Assembly: GCA_007121175.1 (NCBI GenBank)
Contig: SKMG01000427.1
Coordinates: 1-13,461, forward strand
Length of the DNA stretch: 13,461 nt
DNA from: Trueperaceae bacterium
Lineage (GTDB): Bacteria > Deinococcota > Deinococci > Deinococcales > Trueperaceae
Direction: 5' to 3'
Below the pieces are notes generated by a model. It saw only the letters and a list, made by a program, of their open reading frames with translations, was not told the origin of the DNA and ran no database searches. Shown piece after piece: positions 1 to 9,155 of this stretch. The number at the start of each line of letters is the position of its first letter. Position 1 is the stretch's first letter. The position numbers were made by a program, and so were the translations under genes.

Positions 1-864
1 ATCGACGAGGCCGTCGCAGCCTGCACCCGCGTGACGAAGACGCACTCGAGCACCTTCTTCCTCGGCTCACGTCTGTTCACGGGCGAGAGGCGCCGCGCGG
101 TGACGATCATCTACGCGGTCTGCCGCGCGGGCGACGACGCCGTCGACGAGGCGGCCGACCCGGCAGCCGGCCGGGAGCGGCTGGCTCACTGGTGGGCCGG
201 CATCGAGCGGGCGTACGCCGCTCGCCCCCGGAGCGATCGGCCGACCGAAGTGGGTCTGGCCTGGGTGCTGGAGCGCTTCGCGGTCCCGTACGACGCCTTC
301 CTGGAGCTGCGGCTCGGACTCGAGAGCGATCTGAGCGTCCCCGACTTCGAGACGAGCGCGGAGCTGATGCTGTACTGCCGGCGGGTGGCGGGCGTCGTCG
401 GCTGGCTCGTGGCCCCGATCGCCGGTTACCGCGGCGGCCAGGCCACGCTCGACCGGGCGCTGGCCCTGGGGCAGGCGATGCAGCTCACCAACATCCTGCG
501 TGACGTCGGCGAGGATCTCGCCCGAGGCCGCTGCTACCTGCCGGCCGAGCTGCGCCGCCGGCACGGGGTCGAGCTCGACGCCCTCCGGCGGGGCGTGATC
601 ACGCCTGGCTACGTCGCCCTGGTCGAGGAGCTCGCGGAGCTCGCCCATGCGCTGTACCGTGAGGGCTGGCGCGGCATCCCGCAACTCCGGGGCACGGCCG
701 CCAGCGCGGTCGCGGTGGCGGCGCTCAACTACGAGGCGATCTTGCGCAAGCTGCGCCAGAACCGCTACGACAACCTCACCCGCCGCGCCCACCTCCGGCC
801 GCTCGAGCGCCTTGCGCTGATCCCGCGCGCGATGGTGGTGCTGGCAAGCGGCGGACAGTCGTGA
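1..864 (+). CDS. crtB: Phytoene synthase CrtB, 5' end cut off by window edge
   Basis: Squalene/phytoene synthase family enzyme that condenses two GGPP molecules head to head into phytoene, the first committed C40 carotenoid step, at the inner membrane face. The frame is open from base 1 and the residues before the GTG at 31 already fit the family N terminus (ACTRVTKTHSSTFFLGSRLF), so the true start probably lies left of the window; 287 codons are visible. Counting from codon 1, the first Asp-rich motif is DDAVD (45-49), the family signature YCRRVAG starts at 125, and the second Asp-rich motif is in NILRDVGED (164-172). These aspartates bind Mg-diphosphate. The stop at 862-864 is followed by a 33-base gap and crtO on the same strand. 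No key residue is missing. The assignment to phytoene rather than squalene synthase rests on both motifs and on the carotenoid neighbours. Confidence 0.93.
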   Translation: MDEAVAACTRVTKTHSSTFFLGSRLFTGERRRAVTIIYAVCRAGDDAVDEAADPAAGRERLAHWWAGIERAYAARPRSDRPTEVGLAWVLERFAVPYDAFLELRLGLESDLSVPDFETSAELMLYCRRVAGVVGWLVAPIAGYRGGQATLDRALALGQAMQLTNILRDVGEDLARGRCYLPAELRRRHGVELDALRRGVITPGYVALVEELAELAHALYREGWRGIPQLRGTAASAVAVAALNYEAILRKLRQNRYDNLTRRAHLRPLERLALIPRAMVVLASGGQS

Positions 865-897: not shown

Positions 898-2463
898 GTG
901 CCTGACTACGACGTGATCACCATCGGGGCAGGGCACAACGCCCTGGTCACCAGCGCATACCTGGCTCAGGCGGGTTACCGCGTGGCCGTCTTCGAGCGGC
1001 GCGACGTCATAGGGGGCGCGGTCAGTACCGTCGAGATGGTGCCCGGTTACCGCTTCGACCTCGGCGGTTCGGCGCACATCCTGATCCGCAACACGCCGGT
1101 GGTCGAAGAGCTCGGTCTGGATCGCTTCGGCCTCGAGTACCTCGAGTGTGACCCGCTGTTCTTCGCGCCCTACCCAGACGGTGATCATCTGTTCATCCAC
1201 CGCTCGGAGGAGCGGACCGTCGCCGAGCTCGACGAGAAATTCCCCGGCGAGGGCGCCGCCTACGCGCGGTTCCTGGCCGAGTGGCGACCGTTTGCGCGCC
1301 TGGTCCGCGACCTGTTCCTCGCGTCGCCCGACCCGCTCACGCTGGGCCGTGCGGCGCTGTTCTCGAAGGCGGTGGACGATTGGCGCCGCGCGCTGCCGCG
1401 GATCCTATCTCCGTACGGTGAGCTGGTCGACGAGTACTTTCGCGAGGAGAAGGTGAAGACCCCGCTGGTGTGGATGGCCGCCCAGTCGGGTCCGCCGCCT
1501 TCCGAGGCGATGACCGCGCCGTTCCTGCTGTGGCACCCGCTCTACCACGAAAGCGGTGTCGCACGGCCCCGCGGTGGCTCAGGCATGCTGACCCAGGCGC
1601 TCGCGAGTCACATCCGGGCGCACGGCGGCGAGGTGCACCTGCGCGCGGCGGTCGACGAGGTCGTCGTCGAATCCGGCCGCGCGGTCGGGGTGCGCGTCGC
1701 TGGCCAGGCCTACACCGCGCGTGCCGTGGTCAGCGGAGCGCACGTGCTGGAGACCTTCGGGCGGTTGGTGAAGGAGCCTCATCGGCCCGATGCGGCGCGG
1801 CGGGTGCGCACGGGCAACGGTTTCGGCGCCATCGTGCGTCTGGCGCTCGACAAGCCGCTGCGCTACGCGGCCTTTCCCGAGCGTGAGGCGCGCGTCGCGC
1901 TGCAGCTGCTCGCGCGCGATCGGGCCCAGGTGTCCGCAGCCTACGGCGACTTCTTAGCGGGCCGGCCGGCTCGCGACCCGCCGATCGTCGCGATGTCGTT
2001 CTCGGCGGTCGACGACACGCTGGCCCCGCCGGGCGGGGAGGTGCTGTGGCTCTGGGCCCAGTACTTCCCGTACGCACTCTCAGGTTCTCGCCATTGGGAC
2101 GAGCTCGGTCCGGAGGTGGCCGAGTCGATCCTGGACGCCTTCGAGGTCTACGCCCCCGGCACCAAGGCCACGGTGGTGGGCTCGCTCTTCCAGCACCCAC
2201 TCTGGCTCGAGCGCGAGCTCGGCCTCTTCCGTGGCAACGTGATGCACCTCGAGATGAGCCTCGATCAGATGTTCGCCCTGCGTCCCTTCCTGGGCGCGGC
2301 TGGTTACCGGTCGCCCGTGCGGGGCCTGTACCTCACCGGCGCCAGCACCCACCCGGGGGGCGGGATCATGGGCGCTTCGGGACGCAACGCCGCGCGGACG
2401 GTGCTGCGAGACCTCTCGGCGCGGTCGCTCTTCACGCTGCCGCTGCGGCGCGAGGCGCGATGA
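898..2463 (+). CDS. crtO: CrtO-type carotenoid (beta-ring) 4-ketolase
   Basis: FAD-dependent oxidoreductase of the CrtI/CrtO superfamily, 521 aa, starting at GTG 898 after a good SD. The dinucleotide fold is at the N terminus ([15 protein letters not shown], about residues 8-22, followed by FERR). The C-terminal FAD signature [19 protein letters not shown] spans about 476-494. CrtO enzymes put a keto group at C-4 of a beta ring, acting on gamma- or beta-carotene types. CrtI-like desaturases share the fold, but [20 protein letters not shown] and [13 protein letters not shown] match my memory of Deinococcus radiodurans CrtO (DR0093) nearly word for word, whereas CrtI proteins start and end differently. 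It lies between crtB and the cyclase/hydratase fusion, and its stop overlaps the next start as ATGA (2460-2463). A TTA leucine codon at 1954 is rare in such a GC-rich gene. A PYROXD2-like oxidoreductase of other function is the main alternative. Confidence 0.88.
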
Positions 2464-4055
2464 GCGTCGCTGCGCATGCTGGCCGCCGCCCGGCGGTGGT
2501 GCCGGCCTGGGCCTGGGCCCTGCCGCCCCTCGTCGCGCTCTTCAGTGCCCTCGCCTGGGCGCCGGAGATGACCTACGGCCAGTTCCACCTGGGCTTCACG
2601 CTGCCCTGGCTGGTGCTGCTGTCCTTCGCCGCGTATCGCGCCCCGCGCGTCGGTCGCAAGGTGGCCGGCGACATGGGGCGCGGCGACACCTTCGCCTACC
2701 TGGCACTGGCGGCGCACGGCGTGATCGCCTTCATCTACACCACGCCCTGGGACAACTACCTGGTGTACCGGGAGGTGTGGGGCTATCCGCCCGGGCGGGT
2801 GCTGGCCACCATCGGCTACGTCCCGCTCGAGGAGTACGCCTTCTTCCTGATCCAGACGCTCGGCACGGGCCTGTTCCTGTTCGCCGTGGCCCGAGCCATG
2901 CCGCGGCAGGATCACGGTGACCCGGGCCGCGCGGGCTGGCGGGCGCGGGCACTCGGTGCGGCGCTGCTGCTCGGTGCGTCGGGGGCTGGAGTCCTGGCCC
3001 TGACGACCGAGCCCGGCACCTACCTGGGCCTGATCGTGATCTGGGCATTCCCGGTGATCGCGCTGCAGTGGGCCTTCGGCGGCGATCTGATCATGCGGCG
3101 CTGGCGCCTGGTGGCCATCGCCGTCACCCTGCCGACCCTCTACCTCTGGCTCGCGGACCGGCTGGCGATCGGTTGGTCGATCTGGTGGATCAGCCCGGAG
3201 TACACCATCGGCGTTCGGCCGCTGGGGCTGCCCGTCGAGGAGGCCCTGTTCTTCCTCGTGACCAACGTCCTGGTCGTCTTCGGGCTGGTCCTGGTGCTGC
3301 ACCCGGTGTCGCTGGGACGCCTCCAGGCGCTGGTGCAGGCCGTGCGGCGGGCGCCCTGGCGTCCGCTGCTGGTGCTCTGGGCGCTGGCGATGATCCCGAC
3401 GCCGCTCGCGCCCGAGTACTTCGCGCTCTTCGCCTACCTGTCGACGGGCTTCCTGGCGCTCGCCGTCCTGGTCTACGCCCATCAGCGCTACGGCCGCGTG
3501 TCGCTGGCGCTGTTCGGCGTCGCGTTCAGCTTCGGCGTGCTGATCGAGTGGGTCGGCGCGGCGACCGGCGTGCCGTTCGGCCACTACGCCTATACCGCCC
3601 CGGGGCCGGCGATCCTGGGCGTACCGCTGCTGGTGCCGCTCGGCTGGTGGGCGTTCGCGATGATCGGCATCGCCGTTGCGCCGCGCCGGCGCGCGCTGCT
3701 GCTGGCGCCGCTCGCGATGATCGCGTACGACTTGGGCCTCGACCCGCTGATGGTCCAGCAGGGCTTCTGGAGCTTCGCCGCCGACGCGCCCTACTACGGC
3801 GTGCCGCTGTCGAACTTCATCGGCTGGGGCCTCGCCGGTGCGGCGTTGGTGGCCGTGCTGCTGCGCCTCGAACCCCGGCTCGACCTCGATGCGTCGTGGG
3901 ACCTGCGCGCGGTGTACCTCGGGCAAGCGTTCCTGATGGGGTTCGGCCTACTGGTGTTCGGACTGCCGGCGGCGGCGCTGGCAACGACGGTCGCCATGGT
4001 CGCGCTCGCCGCGAGCTGGCGCCGGCCGCCGTCACCGACCCACTCGGCGCGATGA
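2460..4055 (+). CDS. Fusion protein: lycopene cyclase CrtYc-CrtYd plus carotenoid 1,2-hydratase CruF
   Basis: A 531-aa integral membrane protein starting at the ATG that overlaps the crtO stop. Three parts are visible. Residues about 15-145 form a first lycopene cyclase domain with TTPWDNY (94-100) and PLEEYAFF (122-129). Residues about 180-280 form a second copy with [19 protein letters not shown] (233-251) and LPVEEALFF (257-265). The two PxEE copies are the mark of the heterodimer-type cyclase, normally CrtYc plus CrtYd or one fused CrtYcd. Residues about 320-470 match CruF, with [21 protein letters not shown] (356 on), [10 protein letters not shown] (422-431) and [12 protein letters not shown] (445-456). 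Two more hydrophobic segments follow (about 484-520). The cyclase part should close one end of lycopene to a beta ring, and CruF should add water across the 1,2 double bond of the other, psi end. Family members are also C50 cyclases, but no UbiA-like elongase is visible, so a C40 substrate is more likely. There is no stop or frameshift between parts. Confidence 0.88.
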
Positions 4056-4771
4056 CGCGAGCGCGTCCCTACGGCTGGTCGTGGTGGCGCGAGCGAGCGT
4101 TGTCGCGCATCCACGCCGCCATCGCCTGGTACCTGCCCTTGGCCGCTGCGCGCTCGCTGCGACTCGACCTCGCCGGCGTCTGGGGCCTGGAGGAGGGCGA
4201 GACGCCCTCGAACGGCGCGGTGGTGGTGGCGAACCACAACAGTTGGTGGGACGGCTACCTCGCCTGGCTGATCGCGCGCCGGCACGACCGGGCGTTGCGG
4301 GTGCTGGTCGATCAGCAGACGTTGCGCCGCTACCCCTTCTTCGGTCGCCTCGGGGCGGTGCCGAGTACGGCGCTGCGATCGACGATTCGGAGCGTGACCG
4401 AGGGCGCGTGGCTGTTCGTCTTCCCGGAGGGGCGGACGATGCCTGCCGGGCCGCTGCACCGGTTCGAGGCCGGCGCGGCCACCATCTCCCGCCTGGCGCG
4501 CGCCCCGGTGCTGCCGATGGCGTGGCGGGTCGTGATGCGCGGCGCGCAGTACCCCGAGGTGTACGTGCGCCGCGGACGCCCCCTCGCGTGCGGCGCCTCG
4601 GCCTCCGAGCAGCACGCTGCGGTGGCCGAACTGCTCGGGCGCATCGACCACGACCTCGTCGCGGCGACCGATCCCGAGGCGCCGCTGCCGGGATACGAGC
4701 TGTGGAACCCGGGCCGTAGCTCCGGCCACGAGCGGGTCGGTCGCTGGCGGCGCTGGTGGGGGGCGCCATGA
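4052..4771 (+). CDS. Lysophospholipid-acyltransferase-family (PlsC-like) protein, likely carotenoid glycoside acyltransferase
   Basis: 239 aa, starting at the ATG that overlaps the preceding stop (ATGA 4052-4055). The glycerolipid acyltransferase motif I appears as NHNSWWDG (61-68), giving the catalytic HX4D with H62 and D67. Motif III is FPEGRTM (124-130). An N-terminal hydrophobic stretch around 22-34 could hold it at the membrane. General PlsC enzymes acylate lysophosphatidate, but this copy sits between a carotenoid hydratase and a glycosyltransferase with 4-base overlaps on both sides. Its inferred job is to transfer a fatty acyl group to the sugar of a glycosylated carotenoid, the role of CruD in Chlorobaculum (not necessarily homologous). 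The GPAT/PlsC-like fold is clear; the acceptor is inference from context. A house-keeping phospholipid role remains possible. Confidence 0.85.
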
Positions 4772-5892
4772 GCGAAGCGCTGCTGACGCTGGCGTGGTGG
4801 CTGGCCGCTGCCATGCTCGCGCTCGGCTGGTCCGTGGCGCTCCTGAACGCGCTCAGCTTCCCGAGCCTGGCGCGCGCCGGCCGGGGACGACGGCTGAGGC
4901 GGCCGTCGGTGTCGCTGCTGGTGCCCGCGCGCGACGAGCGCGACACCCTGCCACAGACGCTGCCGGGCTTCTTGTCTCAGGGTGCTGACGAGCTGCTGGT
5001 CCTCGACGACGGTTCGAGCGACGGCACCGGTGCCTACCTCCGGGCCGCCGCCTCGGCGCAGAGCACGGCGCCTGCTGGCACTGCGCCGCTGTTGCGCGTG
5101 CTCGACGGCGCCGCCCTGCCGGTTGGCTGGTCGGGGAAGAACTGGGCCTGCCACCAGCTCGCCGAAGCCGCGCGCGGGGAGTTGCTGGTGTTCACCGATG
5201 CCGACGTGCGTTGGGAGCCCGGGGCGCTCGACGCCGTGCGCTCGGCGCTCGCCGAGCACGACGGCGACCTGCTGACCTGCTGGCCGCGGCAGCGCTGCCA
5301 CGGTCTGGGTGAGCGTCTGCTGGTGCCGCTGGTCGACATGCTGCTGCTCTGCACGCTGCCCGCTCCGCTGGCGCGGCGTCCCTGGCCTCCCAGCGCGACC
5401 GGCGCGAACGGTCAGCTGATGGCCTGGACGCGCTCGGCCTACGAGCGGTTCGGCGGGCATGCGGCGGTGCGCGCCGAGGTGCTCGAGGACGTTCGCCTGG
5501 CGCAGCGCGTCAAGCGCCACGGGGGTCGCGTGGTGTTGACCCTGGGGCGCGAGCTGGTCTCGACGCGCATGTACCGCGGCTACCGCGCGGCGGTTCGCGG
5601 CTTCGCCAAGAACGTGCTCGCCGCTGCCGGATCGGCGCCGGCGCTGGTGGGGGTCTGGCTGCTCAACGTACTGACGTACAGCCTGGCGTGGCCGTTCGCG
5701 CTCTTCGACGCGCGCTGGTGGCCGATCGTGGTCGCCGGCGTAGGCCTGCGAGCGCTCACCAATGCCACCGCCGGGCGTGGGGTCGCCGAGGCGCTGCTGC
5801 AACCGCTGAGCCCGCTCGCGCTCGCGCCGGTGGTCGCTCTGGCGCTGCGTTGGCGCGGCGGCTACGTCTGGCGTGGCAGGCGCTACGCGTGA
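4768..5892 (+). CDS. Family-2 glycosyltransferase, CruG/CrtQ-like, likely carotenoid glycosyltransferase
   Basis: 374 aa from the ATG at 4768, which overlaps the acyltransferase stop; a GTG four codons upstream is in frame but less likely. An N-terminal membrane segment (about 5-30) precedes a GT-A domain with VPARDER (52-58), LDDGSSDGT (79-87), GWSGKNWAC (120-128), the metal-binding TDADV (143-147), GANGQLMAW (202-210), [14 protein letters not shown] (229-242) with the likely catalytic ED, and RMYRGY (257-262). Hydrophobic C-terminal segments (about 285-360) complete the membrane-bound layout shared by CruG, CrtQ and the hopanoid-associated HpnB group. Inside a carotenoid operon next to CruF, it most likely moves a sugar from a nucleotide sugar to the new tertiary hydroxyl. 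The sugar and the exact position cannot be read from sequence. Its stop overlaps the next gene (GTGA 5889-5892). Confidence 0.85.
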
Positions 5893-7373
5893 GCGCTCGT
5901 GATCGGTCGCGGAGCCCGGCGCGAGCCGCTGCCGCCGGCCACGGTCGGCGCGTCACAGTCGTCGGCGGCGGCTTCGCCGGCTTGGCTGCGGCCTTGACGC
6001 TGGCGTCGCAAGGAGCCCGCGTCACGCTGGTCGAGCGCGAGCCGCGCCTGGGCGGGAAGGCGGACGAGTGGCGCGACCGGGGCTACCGCTTCGACACCGG
6101 CCCGAGCGTGCTCACGCTGCCGGAGGTCGTGCGCGACACCTTCGCACGCTGCGGCCTGGAGTGCCCGCTGGAGTTCCGGCCCGCGTCCCCGCTGTGTCGC
6201 TACCTCTATCCGGATGGCCGTGCCTGGGACGTCTACCGGGAGCTCGAGCCGACGCTGGCAGGGCTCGACCGGAGCGAGGCAGACGCCTACCGCCGGACGC
6301 TCGACAAGGCCCGGGAGCTCTACGAGGCGGCGGCCCCGGTGTTCGTCCACGGTCCCGCACCCGGTCCCTGGCGGCTGGCCGCCTACGGGCTGCGTCACGG
6401 CTTGCGCGCGGCTCCGGGCCGCTCGCTGCCGGACCTGCTGCGCGCGCTCGGTGCTGCGGGGCCGCTGCTGGGGCCGTTCTTCCTGCGCTTCGCGACCTAC
6501 GTCGGCGCCGACCCTCGGCGGGCGCCGGCGGTGCTGCACAACGTGGCCTGGGCTGAACTCGGCCTGGGAGTGCATCACCTCGAGGGCGGCACCTACGCGT
6601 TGGTGCGCTCGCTCAGGGCGGCGCTGGAGACGCTCGGGGTGGAGCTGCGGTGCGGCGAGGCGGTGGAGCGGCTCGTGACGCGCTCGGGGGTGGTGCGCGA
6701 GGTGGTCACCTCGCGCGGGTCGCTGGCGTGCGACGCGGTGGTCGCCGCCGTCGACCGGGACCTGGTGCTGGCTTGGCTCGGTCGCGCTCGGCGTGAGCGT
6801 GAACCGAGCCTGTCCGGGCTGGTGCTGCTCGCCGGCCTCGGGCAGCGCGACGAGCGGCTCGCCCGGCACACGATCGTGTTCCCCGAGCGGTACGGCGCCG
6901 AGTTCGACGCGATCGCCTCGGGACGGTTCCCGAGCGATCCGACGCTCTACCTCCACATCAGCGCCCGCGACGACCCGGCCGACGCCCCCCCGGGCGGCGA
7001 GAACCGCTTCGTGATGGCCAACGCGCCCGCGCTCCCGCTCGGCAGCGCCGATCCTGAGGCGGTCGAGGCGCTCGAAGCTGCCGGACGCGAGGCCCTGCTC
7101 GCCACCCTCGCCCGGCGCGGCCTCGGTTGGCCGCGCGAGTCGCTGCTCACCAGCCGCTGGCTGGGGCCGGCGGCGTTCGCCGCCTACGGGTACCGCGGCC
7201 GCCTCTACGGCCATGCACCGCACGGCCTGCTCGGCGCGCTGCGTCCCCGGCCGCGGCTGGGCGCGGCCTCGAACCTGGTGCTGGCCGGAGGGACGGTCCA
7301 CCCCGGCGGCGGCGTGCCGCTGGCGCTGCTGTCGGGCCGCTACGCCGCCGCGACGCTGATCGCAAGCTGGTGA
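5889..7373 (+). CDS. crtD: CrtI/CrtD-family carotenoid desaturase, probably CrtD-like 3,4-desaturase
   Basis: 494 aa, starting at GTG 5889 inside the GTGA overlap with the glycosyltransferase stop; no ATG lies between this and the FAD motif. The dinucleotide fold is VVGGGFAGL (24-32), with VERE (48-51) and LGGKADEW (54-61). The substrate-side motif [13 protein letters not shown] follows (about 68-80). The C-terminal FAD motif [18 protein letters not shown] starts at 467. The phrase GG.xHPG.GVP..LSGR is closer to CrtD (1-hydroxycarotenoid 3,4-desaturase), as I remember it, than to the GAGTHPGAGIPG ending of CrtI. CrtD acts after hydration, which fits the CruF domain upstream. It is the last gene of the operon, so the phytoene desaturase CrtI must lie elsewhere, perhaps upstream of crtB. 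If this assignment is wrong, it is CrtI itself. A run of seven C bases (6985-6991) stays in frame. Confidence 0.85.
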
Positions 7374-7449: not shown

Positions 7450-8019
7450 ATGAAGCTCTACACCAAGACCGGTGACGACGGGACCACCGGCCTGTACGGC
7501 GGCGACCGTACGCGCAAGGACGCCATCCGCGTCGAGGCCTACGGGACCGTCGACGAAGCCAACGCCGCACTCGGCGTGTCTCGCCTCTACCTCGACGACG
7601 TGGAGCTCGACAAGCTCGTGGCCGGCCTGCAACACGCGCTGTTCGACGTCGGCGCCGATCTCGCCACCCCGGGGAACGCCAGCCAACGGCGGACGCTGGC
7701 ACTGCTCGAGGACTCGGACGTCGCCTTCCTCGAGACCGCCATCGACCGGCACGACGCCGAGCTCGAGCCGTTGCGTCACTTCATCGTGCCGGGGGGCCAC
7801 GCCGGCAGCGCCGCACTCCACCAGGCACGCGCGGTCGTGCGACGTGCCGAGCGGGCGGTCGTCCGGCTCGCGTTTGAGACGGACGACGTGAACCCGGTGG
7901 TGCTGCGCTACCTCAATCGGCTCTCCGACTTGCTGTTCGTGCTGGCGCGGCTCGTGAACGCGCGCCACGGCGTCAGCGAGTCGCGCCTGCTGGTGCAGCG
8001 CAGGCACCGTATCCGCTGA
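7450..8019 (+). CDS. PduO-type ATP:cob(I)alamin adenosyltransferase
   Basis: 189 aa; transfers the adenosyl group of ATP to cob(I)alamin to make coenzyme B12 (adenosylcobalamin), in the cytoplasm. The N-terminal ATP-binding signature YTKTGDDGTTGLYGG (4-18) is complete. RVEAYGTVDEANA (27-39), the helix with VVRRAERAVV (129-138) and NRLSDLLFVLAR (156-167) are the other family hallmarks. The length fits the single-domain PduO/MMAB trimeric enzyme. The ATG at 7450 is chosen because the signature begins at residue 4 and a -10 box sits directly upstream. It stands alone between the carotenoid operon and a convergent gene pair, so the B12-dependent enzyme it serves is not visible here. No residue in the motifs is lost. 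Confidence 0.95.
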   Translation: MKLYTKTGDDGTTGLYGGDRTRKDAIRVEAYGTVDEANAALGVSRLYLDDVELDKLVAGLQHALFDVGADLATPGNASQRRTLALLEDSDVAFLETAIDRHDAELEPLRHFIVPGGHAGSAALHQARAVVRRAERAVVRLAFETDDVNPVVLRYLNRLSDLLFVLARLVNARHGVSESRLLVQRRHRIR

Positions 8020-8023
8020 GACC

Positions 8024-8064
8024 GCGCGCCCTCGACGCCCCGCACCGACGGTGCCTAGGCGCGC
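8024..8064. terminator. Nested inverted repeat between convergent genes, possible bidirectional terminator
   Basis: An outer pair GCGCGCC (8024-8030) and GGCGCGC (8058-8064) encloses an inner perfect hairpin GCACC-GAC-GGTGC (8042-8054). It fills the 35-base gap between the stops of the adenosyltransferase gene (8019) and pyrD (8055) and runs a few bases into the pyrD end. There is no T run on either side, so it is not a classic intrinsic terminator; position is the main support. Confidence 0.35.
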
Positions 8065-9155
8065 ACCATTACCTCGTGCCGCGCGTCGCGCTCATCGAGC
8101 CAGGTCTGCAGGTCGGGCGCTCCCACGGCATCGAGCCAGCGCACCAGGCCGCGAGCGAGCTTCCGGGCCATGAAGGGGCCTTCGTAGATCCAGCCGGTGT
8201 AGACGTGCACCAGGCTGGCGCCGGCCTCGAGCCGCTCGATGACGTCGGCTGCGCTCTCGATTCCGCCCGAGGCGACCAGCGGCAGGCGCGTGCGCTGCCG
8301 CAACGAACGCAGCACCGCCAGCGCTCGCGGCGCCAGCGGCGGACCCGAGAGGCCGCCGGCTTCGCCCGGGTCGACGCGCAGCGTGTCGCGAGCCACGGTC
8401 GTGTTGGTGGCGATCAGGCCGTCGAGGGCGGCGGCCTCGGCAGCCGCCGTGACGACGTCGAGCGCGCTCTCGTCGAGGTCGGGGGAGACCTTCAGCAGCA
8501 TCGGCTTGGGCCCGAGCTCTGAGCGAAGCTCGCCGATCCGGCCCAGCAGAGGTTCGAGGTACGCCTGCTCCTGCAGCGTGCGCAGCCCGGGCGTGTTGGG
8601 CGAGCTCACGTTGAGCACCAGGTAGTCGGCCACCGGCCACACCGCTCGCAGCGCCTGCTCGTAGTCGAGCACGGCGTCGTGCAGCTCGGCGTCGCGGCTC
8701 TTGCCGACGTTGATGCCGAGCGGAGCGTCGGGCCACCAAGGCCGCGCCCTGGCCGTGCGCAGGCGACCGGCGATCGCGCTCGCCCCGAGGTTGTTGAAGC
8801 CCATCCGGTTGATCAGCGCGCGTTCGGCGACGAGCCGGTACAGCCGGGGGCGCGGGTTGCCCGGTTGGGCTCTCGCGGTGACGGTGCCTAGGTCTGCGGT
8901 GCCGAAGCCGAGGGCCGGCCAGGCCGCGGCGGCGTCGGCGTTCTTGTCGAAGCCGGCGGCGAGGCCGATCGGGTTGGCGAACTCGAGACCGAAGCGGCGC
9001 ACCCGCAGCCGTGGTTCGACCGGCATGAACACGGTCCTGATGAGCCGCAGCGCTGCTGGATGGCGGTCGCTGAACGCCAGCGCGCGCATGACCAGCTCAT
9101 GGACCTGCTCAGGCTCGAGGCGGAACATCAGGCCCCGCACCAGGGCGTACGACAC
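8055..9155 (-). CDS. pyrD: Dihydroorotate dehydrogenase, class 2 (quinone-dependent)
   Basis: 366 aa; oxidises dihydroorotate to orotate in pyrimidine synthesis, passing electrons through FMN to membrane quinone. The N-terminal helical part (about 1-50, beginning SYALVRGLMFRLEPEQVHE) is the membrane/quinone-binding extension that marks class 2. FMN and substrate motifs follow in order: AAGFDKN (66-72), NRMGFNN (116-122), INVGKS (148-153), LNVSSPNTPGLR (181-192) with the class 2 catalytic serine, LKVSPDL (221-227), TNTT (250-253), GGLSG (267-271), ASGGI (295-299) and VYTGWIYEGP (318-327). The start is GTG at 9155, only 6 bases after the SDR stop on the same strand, so the two are probably one transcript. 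No other pyr gene is adjacent. Confidence 0.96.
   Translation of the reverse strand: MSYALVRGLMFRLEPEQVHELVMRALAFSDRHPAALRLIRTVFMPVEPRLRVRRFGLEFANPIGLAAGFDKNADAAAAWPALGFGTADLGTVTARAQPGNPRPRLYRLVAERALINRMGFNNLGASAIAGRLRTARARPWWPDAPLGINVGKSRDAELHDAVLDYEQALRAVWPVADYLVLNVSSPNTPGLRTLQEQAYLEPLLGRIGELRSELGPKPMLLKVSPDLDESALDVVTAAAEAAALDGLIATNTTVARDTLRVDPGEAGGLSGPPLAPRALAVLRSLRQRTRLPLVASGGIESAADVIERLEAGASLVHVYTGWIYEGPFMARKLARGLVRWLDAVGAPDLQTWLDERDARHEVMVRA

What the first reader, a model, noticed from the sequence alone, without database searches (positions are those of the whole stretch)
2460..4055. Lycopene cyclase (CrtYc-CrtYd) fused to carotenoid 1,2-hydratase CruF in one membrane protein
Seen directly: two cyclase domains, each with a PxEE motif (122-125 and 258-261), and a complete CruF-type domain with DLGLDP and [12 protein letters not shown] lie in one uninterrupted 531-aa frame. 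Known: these are normally separate proteins, with the cyclase as one or two small subunits and CruF alone; CrtYB-type fusions join cyclase to phytoene synthase instead. Inference: one polypeptide cyclises one end of lycopene and hydrates the other, which would enforce the monocyclic, 1'-hydroxylated product and avoid beta-carotene. I do not recall this fusion being described biochemically.
Basis: partly seen in the sequence, partly recalled or inferred. Interest (0 to 1): 0.75.

Follow-up and report, generated by a model that had tools for sequence, protein, structure and literature searches.

The report
Lycopene cyclase fused to carotenoid hydratase
One membrane protein of a Trueperaceae bacterium joins two pigment-making enzymes that are usually separate, and relatives of Deinococcus and Meiothermus carry either the same double enzyme or a version whose first half has worn away, which may explain why no lycopene cyclase had been found in some Deinococcus species.

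Summary
Confirmed: window 2460-4055 (+) is one 531-aa frame with two CrtYc/CrtYd-type lycopene-cyclase repeats and a CruF-type hydratase domain. It is no sequencing artefact: 28 of 111 Deinococcota genomes have it, and all 188 fused proteins kept from three capped searches hold both PxEE motifs. Every carrier seen with an organism name is from Deinococcota.

In Meiothermus that slot holds an unrelated FAD-type cyclase gene followed by a CruF whose N-terminus is a worn-down cyclase half without PxEE motifs; some Deinococcus CruFs keep a shorter, weakly supported vestige; Thermus has only the cyclase. The best CruF tree needs three changes, read as losses; one common loss for Meiothermus and Deinococcus is rejected. 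D. deserti and D. peraridilitoris, reported without crtLm, carry the intact fusion.

Likely function: cyclise one lycopene end, hydrate the other. No activity is shown. That the fusion enforces the monocyclic product is doubtful: separate enzymes do this elsewhere, and both predicted active faces lie on one membrane side. Ten searches of an open-licence library showed no description of this fusion in the passages read.

The parts
2460..4055 (+). whole cyclase-hydratase fusion gene, 531 aa; ATG overlaps the stop of the gene before it (ATGA)
   Evidence: conserved architecture
2568..2876 (+). first lycopene-cyclase repeat (CrtYc-like), PLEE at residues 122-125 (2823-2834)
   Evidence: TIGR03462, 58.6 bits; P122, E124, E125 in 188 of 188 fused proteins
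3018..3287 (+). second lycopene-cyclase repeat (CrtYd-like), PVEE at residues 258-261 (3231-3242)
   Evidence: TIGR03462, 84.1 bits; P258, E260, E261 in 188 of 188
3303..3356 (+). linker, residues 282-299, rich in arginine; predicted helix 282-297, taken as amphipathic (inference)
   Evidence: AlphaFold2 model; charge count
3450..4004 (+). [quoted passage not shown]
   Evidence: PF04240 114.3 bits, residues 332-515
1..864 (+). phytoene synthase crtB by context (5' end cut by the window edge)
   Evidence: PF00494 243 bits. In NCBIfam the best match is HpnD, 211 bits of 278.6, ahead of a CrtB model, 177 of 550: the name crtB rests on the operon
898..2463 (+). crtO-like carotenoid ketolase/oxidoreductase
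   Evidence: best NCBIfam match BCarotKetCrtO 342 bits, under its cut-off of 1000; gene order
4052..4771 (+). acyltransferase (CruD-like by position and pathway logic); ATGA overlap with the fusion
   Evidence: PF01553 53.3 bits
4768..5892 (+). family-2 glycosyltransferase (CruC/CruG-like by context); ATGA overlap
   Evidence: PF13506, PF00535; in NCBIfam HpnB 136 bits of 379, CruG 87.7 of 600, both under cut-off
5889..7373 (+). crtD-like 1-hydroxycarotenoid 3,4-desaturase, from a GTG that overlaps the stop before it
   Evidence: NF045637 269.7 bits (cut-off 580), TIGR02734 251 bits over its cut-off; start read; a stronger CrtI match lies elsewhere in the genome

Best explanation
The protein is a bifunctional membrane enzyme. 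Its first half (two CrtYc/CrtYd repeats, seven predicted transmembrane helices after an extra N-terminal one) cyclises one psi-end of lycopene to a beta-ring; its second half (CruF) adds water to the 1',2' double bond of the other end, giving 1'-hydroxy-gamma-carotene. Neighbouring genes then desaturate (CrtD), put on the keto group (CrtO), glycosylate and acylate it, giving a salinixanthin-like acyl glycoside. Shown: the fused frame, the domains, invariance of the motifs, the operon. Inferred: both activities, substrate order and the product. The fusion is old in Deinococcota (inference from trees and vestiges); its cyclase half was later lost or gutted more than once, in Meiothermus beside an unrelated FAD-dependent cyclase gene that now sits just upstream, while Thermus appears to have lost the hydratase half.
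For: Domains and motifs. Of 26 conserved positions checked, 23 are invariant in all 188 fused proteins, among them P122, E124, E125, P258, E260, E261, D98, D209, D233, E363, D424 and N452; the others are W107 (187 W, 1 R), D428 (132 D, 56 E) and F453 (187 F, 1 Y). Gene order crtO-fusion-acyltransferase-glycosyltransferase-crtD in 21 of 22 loci with a whole fusion, the other (L089) ending at a contig edge. AlphaFold2 model: mean pLDDT 94.2, pTM 0.90 over the whole chain. Cyclase and CruF halves are about equally conserved among 18 fused loci (mean identity 0.54 and 0.59). Vestige: N-terminus of Meiothermus-type CruF against a cyclase profile up to 35.7 bits, 13 of 20 above the best of 4000 shuffles (7.5); profile-profile score 76.4 against a best of 19.2 in 100 column shuffles. 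CruF tree: fused proteins as one clade rejected (p-AU 0.0007); worn-down Deinococcus plus Meiothermus rows as one clade rejected (p-AU 0.0019), three changes on the best tree. FAD cyclase PF05834 directly upstream of CruF on the same strand in 18 of 20 Meiothermus-type genomes; in the other two CruF sits at a contig end.
Against: No activity data were found for any fused protein. Curated cut-offs of the CruF equivalog models and of PF18916 are not reached. 8 of 28 fused genomes also encode a strong PF05834 protein (at least 100 bits), so the fused cyclase need not be the only one there. The cyclase tree does not join the fused cyclases; a single clade is 19.9 log units worse but not rejected (p-AU 0.0895), so two fusion events remain possible. 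Several branches that part fused from unfused CruFs are not well supported (85/79, 82/73, 92/85). The vestige in Deinococcus is weak on its own: 1 of 12 above the best shuffle, profile probability 9.2% against the cyclase and 68.9% against the Meiothermus remnant.
Confidence: 0.82

Rival explanations
1. The cyclase half can act on both ends, and the asymmetric product arises only from competition between the halves, not from any coupling by the fusion. (Compatible with the bifunctional enzyme; it rivals the reader's 'enforces'.)
For: Separate Nonlabens CrtY alone gives beta-carotene, CruF alone dihydroxylycopene and hydroxylycopene, both together mainly 1'-hydroxy-gamma-carotene (PMC11855829, passages). 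Both predicted active-site faces lie on the same, low-charge side of the membrane, so one membrane-spanning lycopene could not engage both at once (inference).
Against: The fusion is kept in Trueperaceae, Deinococcus and Deinobacterium, which suggests some advantage; it may be only equal dosage.
Confidence: 0.5
2. The cyclase half is a structural or regulatory pseudo-enzyme, and the genome's real lycopene cyclase is another protein.
For: 8 of 28 fused genomes have a strong PF05834 protein; a cyclase remnant without the motifs is kept in Meiothermus-type CruF with dN/dS below 1 (75 of 75 usable pairs).
Against: Both PxEE motifs are invariant in 188 of 188 fused proteins, unlike in the nine remnant rows aligned; 20 of 28 fused genomes, the window's own (77.8% complete) among them, show no PF05834 match of 100 bits.
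Confidence: 0.08
3. The N-terminal extension of Meiothermus and Deinococcus CruF is unrelated membrane sequence that resembles the cyclase by chance.
For: For the short Deinococcus extensions the scores are near the noise (1 of 12 above the best shuffle; profile probability 9.2%). 11 of 39 Meiothermus-type N-termini do not exceed the best shuffle either. A structural look-up of a Meiothermus model did not list the cyclase half's best match.
Against: for Meiothermus; same helix order, five helices matching the third to seventh cyclase helices of the fused model, with only the catalytic loop missing; same operon slot; place among fused CruFs on the trees.
Confidence: 0.07

Closest known systems
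CrtYcd-type lycopene cyclases (two proteins or a single CrtYcd; PMC2889829 passages)
   Same: Two repeats with PxEE motifs, order c then d
   Different: Here continued by a hydratase domain in the same chain
CruF carotenoid 1,2-hydratase (Deinococcus DR0091, Dgeo2309; as cited in PMC11306087 and PMC11855829, passages)
   Same: PF04240 domain with the conserved loops
   Different: Fused behind a complete cyclase; under the CruF equivalog cut-offs
CruF-acyltransferase fusion of Thermomicrobium roseum trd_1162 (PMC2615216, passages)
   Same: Fusion of the 1,1' hydroxylase (CruF type) with the enzyme of another step of the same pathway
   Different: There the partner is C-terminal and is an acyltransferase. 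Some proteins here have all three (L092, L093, P0029)
Fungal CrtYB (lycopene cyclase-phytoene synthase; PMC2889829 passages; the name CrtYB is recalled)
   Same: CrtYcd-type cyclase in a bifunctional protein
   Different: Partner is phytoene synthase; here crtB is a separate gene
Adjacent crtYcd and cruF genes of Chloroflexota (L019, L021, L039, L070)
   Same: Same order, directly adjacent
   Different: Two separate frames

Membership tests
CrtYcd-type lycopene cyclase | TIGR03462 domain twice | tested here: met
   125.3 bits, two stretches; 58.6 and 84.1 bits
CrtYcd-type lycopene cyclase | Pfam PF18916 over its gathering score | tested here: not met
   24.9 bits, cut-off 27; the precomputed Pfam column, with a later model version, does list PF18916 for P0001
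CrtYcd-type lycopene cyclase | cyclises lycopene | not testable with these tools
   needs expression and pigment analysis
CruF hydratase | PF04240 over its cut-off | tested here: met
   112.2 bits, cut-off 25
CruF hydratase | over the cut-off of a CruF equivalog model | tested here: not met
   TIGR03460 78.7 of 154.7; NF041333 53.8 of 300; NF045693 45 of 400
CruF hydratase | hydrates the 1,2 double bond of a psi-end | not testable with these tools
   needs expression and pigment analysis
Fungal CrtYB | phytoene synthase domain in the same chain | tested here: not met
   no PF00494 match in P0001; PF00494 is met by the separate gene at 1-864
T. roseum CruF-acyltransferase fusion | acyltransferase domain behind CruF in the same chain | tested here: not met
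   separate gene 4052-4771 in the window; joined in L092 and L093 and P0029

The most novel reading that the evidence does not exclude
The cyclase-hydratase fusion is the ancestral carotenoid-branching enzyme of Deinococcota. In several lineages an unrelated FAD-dependent cyclase took over, and the old cyclase half was gutted in place but kept, under selection, as a catalytically dead scaffold on CruF, perhaps as a docking platform for the replacement cyclase encoded directly upstream, so that the two-reaction complex survived the exchange of one of its enzymes.
Probability: 0.3. Interest if true: 0.75.

Novelty: new variant of a known kind. Interest (0 to 1): 0.62.

Why it matters
It offers an answer to a gap in print: a comparison of Deinococcus pigment genes has no entry for the crtLm lycopene cyclase in D. 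deserti, D. ficus, D. proteolyticus and D. peraridilitoris (PMC5984946, Table 3). D. deserti and D. peraridilitoris carry the intact fusion, so their cyclase would be hidden inside the protein taken for CruF. It also gives a graded series of enzyme displacement by an unrelated enzyme inside one gene, from intact fusion to gutted scaffold to short vestige to almost none, with the replacement gene next door in Meiothermus. It supplies a candidate single-gene part for monocyclic carotenoids, and it warns that 'carotenoid biosynthesis protein' annotations in this phylum can hide two enzymes or a dead half.

Tried and rejected

Literature: ten searches of an open-licence library. Nine papers opened: passages only, except one section of PMC5984946 read whole. 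None of these passages describes a cyclase-CruF fusion. Subscription reviews on Deinococcus-Thermus carotenoids were not seen.
Full report
What is there. The frame at 2460-4055 (+) encodes 531 aa without a stop. It holds TIGR03462, the lycopene-cyclase repeat, twice, and PF04240, the CruF domain, once. PF18916 and the CruF equivalog models are matched under their curated cut-offs, which I read as divergence, not absence. The start codon overlaps the stop of the crtO-like gene before it, the acyltransferase and glycosyltransferase that follow each start in an ATGA overlap, and the crtD-like gene can start at a GTG in the same kind of overlap. The operon reads crtB, crtO-like, fusion, acyltransferase, glycosyltransferase, crtD-like; crtB, crtO, CruD/CruC and crtD are names by context, as none of these genes reaches the cut-off of an equivalog model for that enzyme, and the first gene scores higher with HpnD than with CrtB models. 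A strong CrtI match (607 bits, with one TGA reported inside) lies on another contig of the same draft genome, 77.8% complete, so the window's last gene is more likely CrtD than CrtI.

It is conserved. Nearest named relatives are Trueperaceae metagenome bins (L002-L015). Of 111 Deinococcota genomes held, 53 have PF04240 and 54 have TIGR03462. In 28 genomes the two lie in one frame: 25 of family f1, that of the window, and 3 of f2; in two of these (G101, G073) the copy is cut or gapped. In the 84,980-species collection 384 stretches encode a relative and the best 80 were kept: 15 (L002-L016) hold cyclase and CruF in one frame; L017 is cut by its contig end; in 4 Chloroflexota the genes are adjacent and separate; in the other 60 a CruF profile finds none in the DNA held. 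Of 239 proteins kept from three protein searches (120 of 202, 52 of 52 and 120 of 337 hits listed, overlapping), 188 are fused (cyclase profile over 100 bits, CruF profile over 60) and 51 are CruF only. Of 26 conserved positions checked in the 188, 23 never vary; W107, D428 and F453 vary in 1, 56 and 1. Named carriers include Deinococcus malanensis, peraridilitoris, cavernae, hohokamensis, navajonensis, irradiatisoli, detaillensis, lacus, radiomollis, aquiradiocola and Deinobacterium chartae, and D. deserti plasmid 2, where the order is crtO-like, fusion, acyltransferase, DoxX, glycosyltransferase, crtD-like.

How it may work. AlphaFold2 gives mean pLDDT 94.2 and pTM 0.90. From the helix list I infer an extra N-terminal helix, seven cyclase helices, a linker helix (282-297) and the CruF helices, each crossing once. 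The segments between helices then alternate: the nine on side B, both termini included, hold on average 1.26 to 5.16 lysines and arginines, the eight on side A 0.02 to 1.78 (50 sequences; two residues of each neighbouring helix counted in). The ranges touch at one loop. All loops with the conserved motifs (104-122, 239-258, 370-390, 434-449) fall on side A. By the positive-inside rule both active-site faces then lie on the non-cytoplasmic side, so a single membrane-spanning lycopene could not have both ends treated at once; two successive steps with release or turning are likelier. This is inference from a model; no distances could be measured. The expected product is 1'-hydroxy-gamma-carotene, further turned into a keto, glycosylated and acylated form like salinixanthin. 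[quoted passage not shown] Separate enzymes can give the same asymmetric first product (PMC11855829, passages), so the fusion is not needed for it.

Worn-down relatives. Meiothermus-type CruF proteins (P0121-P0159) are 306-405 aa long, against about 220 for the domain. Their N-terminus aligns with the cyclase from about residue 124 on: up to 35.7 bits with a cyclase-only profile, 13 of 20 loci above the best of 4000 shuffles (7.5). Among database proteins 28 of 39 Meiothermus-type and 1 of 12 Deinococcus-type N-termini exceed the best shuffle (7.4; 100 shuffles of each of 52). Profile against profile, 38 Meiothermus-type N-termini score 76.4 against the cyclase (probability 97.3%), best of 100 column shuffles 19.2; the 12 Deinococcus-type ones score 23.4 (9.2%; best shuffle 19.1), and 32.0 against the Meiothermus remnant (68.9%; best shuffle 21.9). 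In the alignment of six Meiothermus-type and three Deinococcus rows the first PxEE is cut off, the second is replaced or gone, and the loop before it is missing. A model of one Meiothermus-type protein (pLDDT 86.5, pTM 0.79) keeps five helices in the order of the third to seventh cyclase helices, with three residues where the fused protein has a twenty-residue loop. The remnant evolves like translated, weakly constrained protein: dN/dS is below 1 in 75 of 75 usable pairs (of 78), median 0.42 against 0.24 for CruF, and higher than CruF in 73 of 75; the pairs are not independent, and 13 of 20 loci were used, 7 being left out as cut, short or oddly long. In L105 the remnant is all but gone.

Replacement next door. 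PF05834, the FAD-dependent cyclase family, lies on the same strand directly upstream of CruF in 18 of the 20 genomes of Meiothermus type (19 of f5 plus G002); in the other two (G029, G043) CruF sits at a contig end. Where the flank is long enough the order is crtO, FAD cyclase, remnant-CruF, acyltransferase, glycosyltransferase, crtD: the slot of the fusion. PF05834 matches of at least 100 bits (my threshold; G109 in two pieces on two contigs) occur in 23 of 25 genomes with CruF but no cyclase domain and in 8 of 28 with the fusion. The genomes are related, so this is a description, not a test. G095 has CruF alone in the operon slot and a PF05834 protein elsewhere; four genomes of f3 have an ordinary separate CruF, three of them with strong PF05834. 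Thermus-type loci have the cyclase directly before acyltransferase and glycosyltransferase and no CruF.

Trees. CruF domains: fused rows as one clade are rejected (p-AU 0.0007). With 14 more fused rows added and 6 distant rows (haloarchaeal, Nostoc, four of f3) dropped, the Deinococcota rows need at least three changes between fused and unfused, which I read as losses because of the remnants; worn-down Deinococcus plus Meiothermus rows as one clade is rejected (p-AU 0.0019), 15 fused Deinococcus-like rows as one clade too (7e-5), and the nine short Deinococcus-type rows as one clade only borderline (0.0451). The third change rests on one row, P0165, without an organism name. So two losses are well supported and three are likely, with G095, not in the tree, as a further case. 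Cyclase domains: a single clade of fused cyclases is 19.9 log units worse but not rejected (0.0895), so one or two fusion events are open.

The published gap. PMC5984946 (passages; [quoted passage not shown] deserti, D. ficus, D. proteolyticus and D. peraridilitoris, and cruF identity is only 36-38% in three of them (51.8% in D. proteolyticus). Two of the four are shown here to carry the intact fusion. PMC2889829 (passages) suggests horizontal transfer for the patchy cyclase types of Deinococcus, Thermus and Chloroflexi; in-place loss of one half of a fusion is a different, testable account for part of it.

Limits. No activity is shown. Many genomes are draft metagenome bins. Absence from print was checked only in the open-licence library (ten searches).

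Noticed in passing
L092 4169-6388 (-), L093 1717-4224 (+), protein P0029: Triple fusion cyclase-CruF-acyltransferase in one frame in some relatives (open frames of 740 and 836 aa, protein of 776 aa). The genome length behind L092 matches my recollection of Truepera radiovictrix.
   Followed up: partly
[not shown]
   Followed up: no
L153 and L154 (G097, G083), and G073 contig C360: A second, distant PF04240 match (31-43 bits) in three genomes that also have the fusion; function unknown.
   Followed up: no
L019, L021, L039: In three Chloroflexota loci cyclase and CruF stand in the same frame, parted by exactly one stop codon; likely ordinary coupled genes.
   Followed up: partly
G000 contig C442, 1560-3053 (-), L157: The window genome's strong CrtI match is reported with one TGA inside; not examined.
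   Followed up: no
L124 1842-2642 and 1882-2628: The cyclase of one Thermus-type genome (G051; also G052) is split over two frames, so it may be broken or mis-sequenced.
   Followed up: no
window 7450-8019 (+), 8055-9155 (-): Ordinary genes after the operon: cobalamin adenosyltransferase and dihydroorotate dehydrogenase.
   Followed up: no
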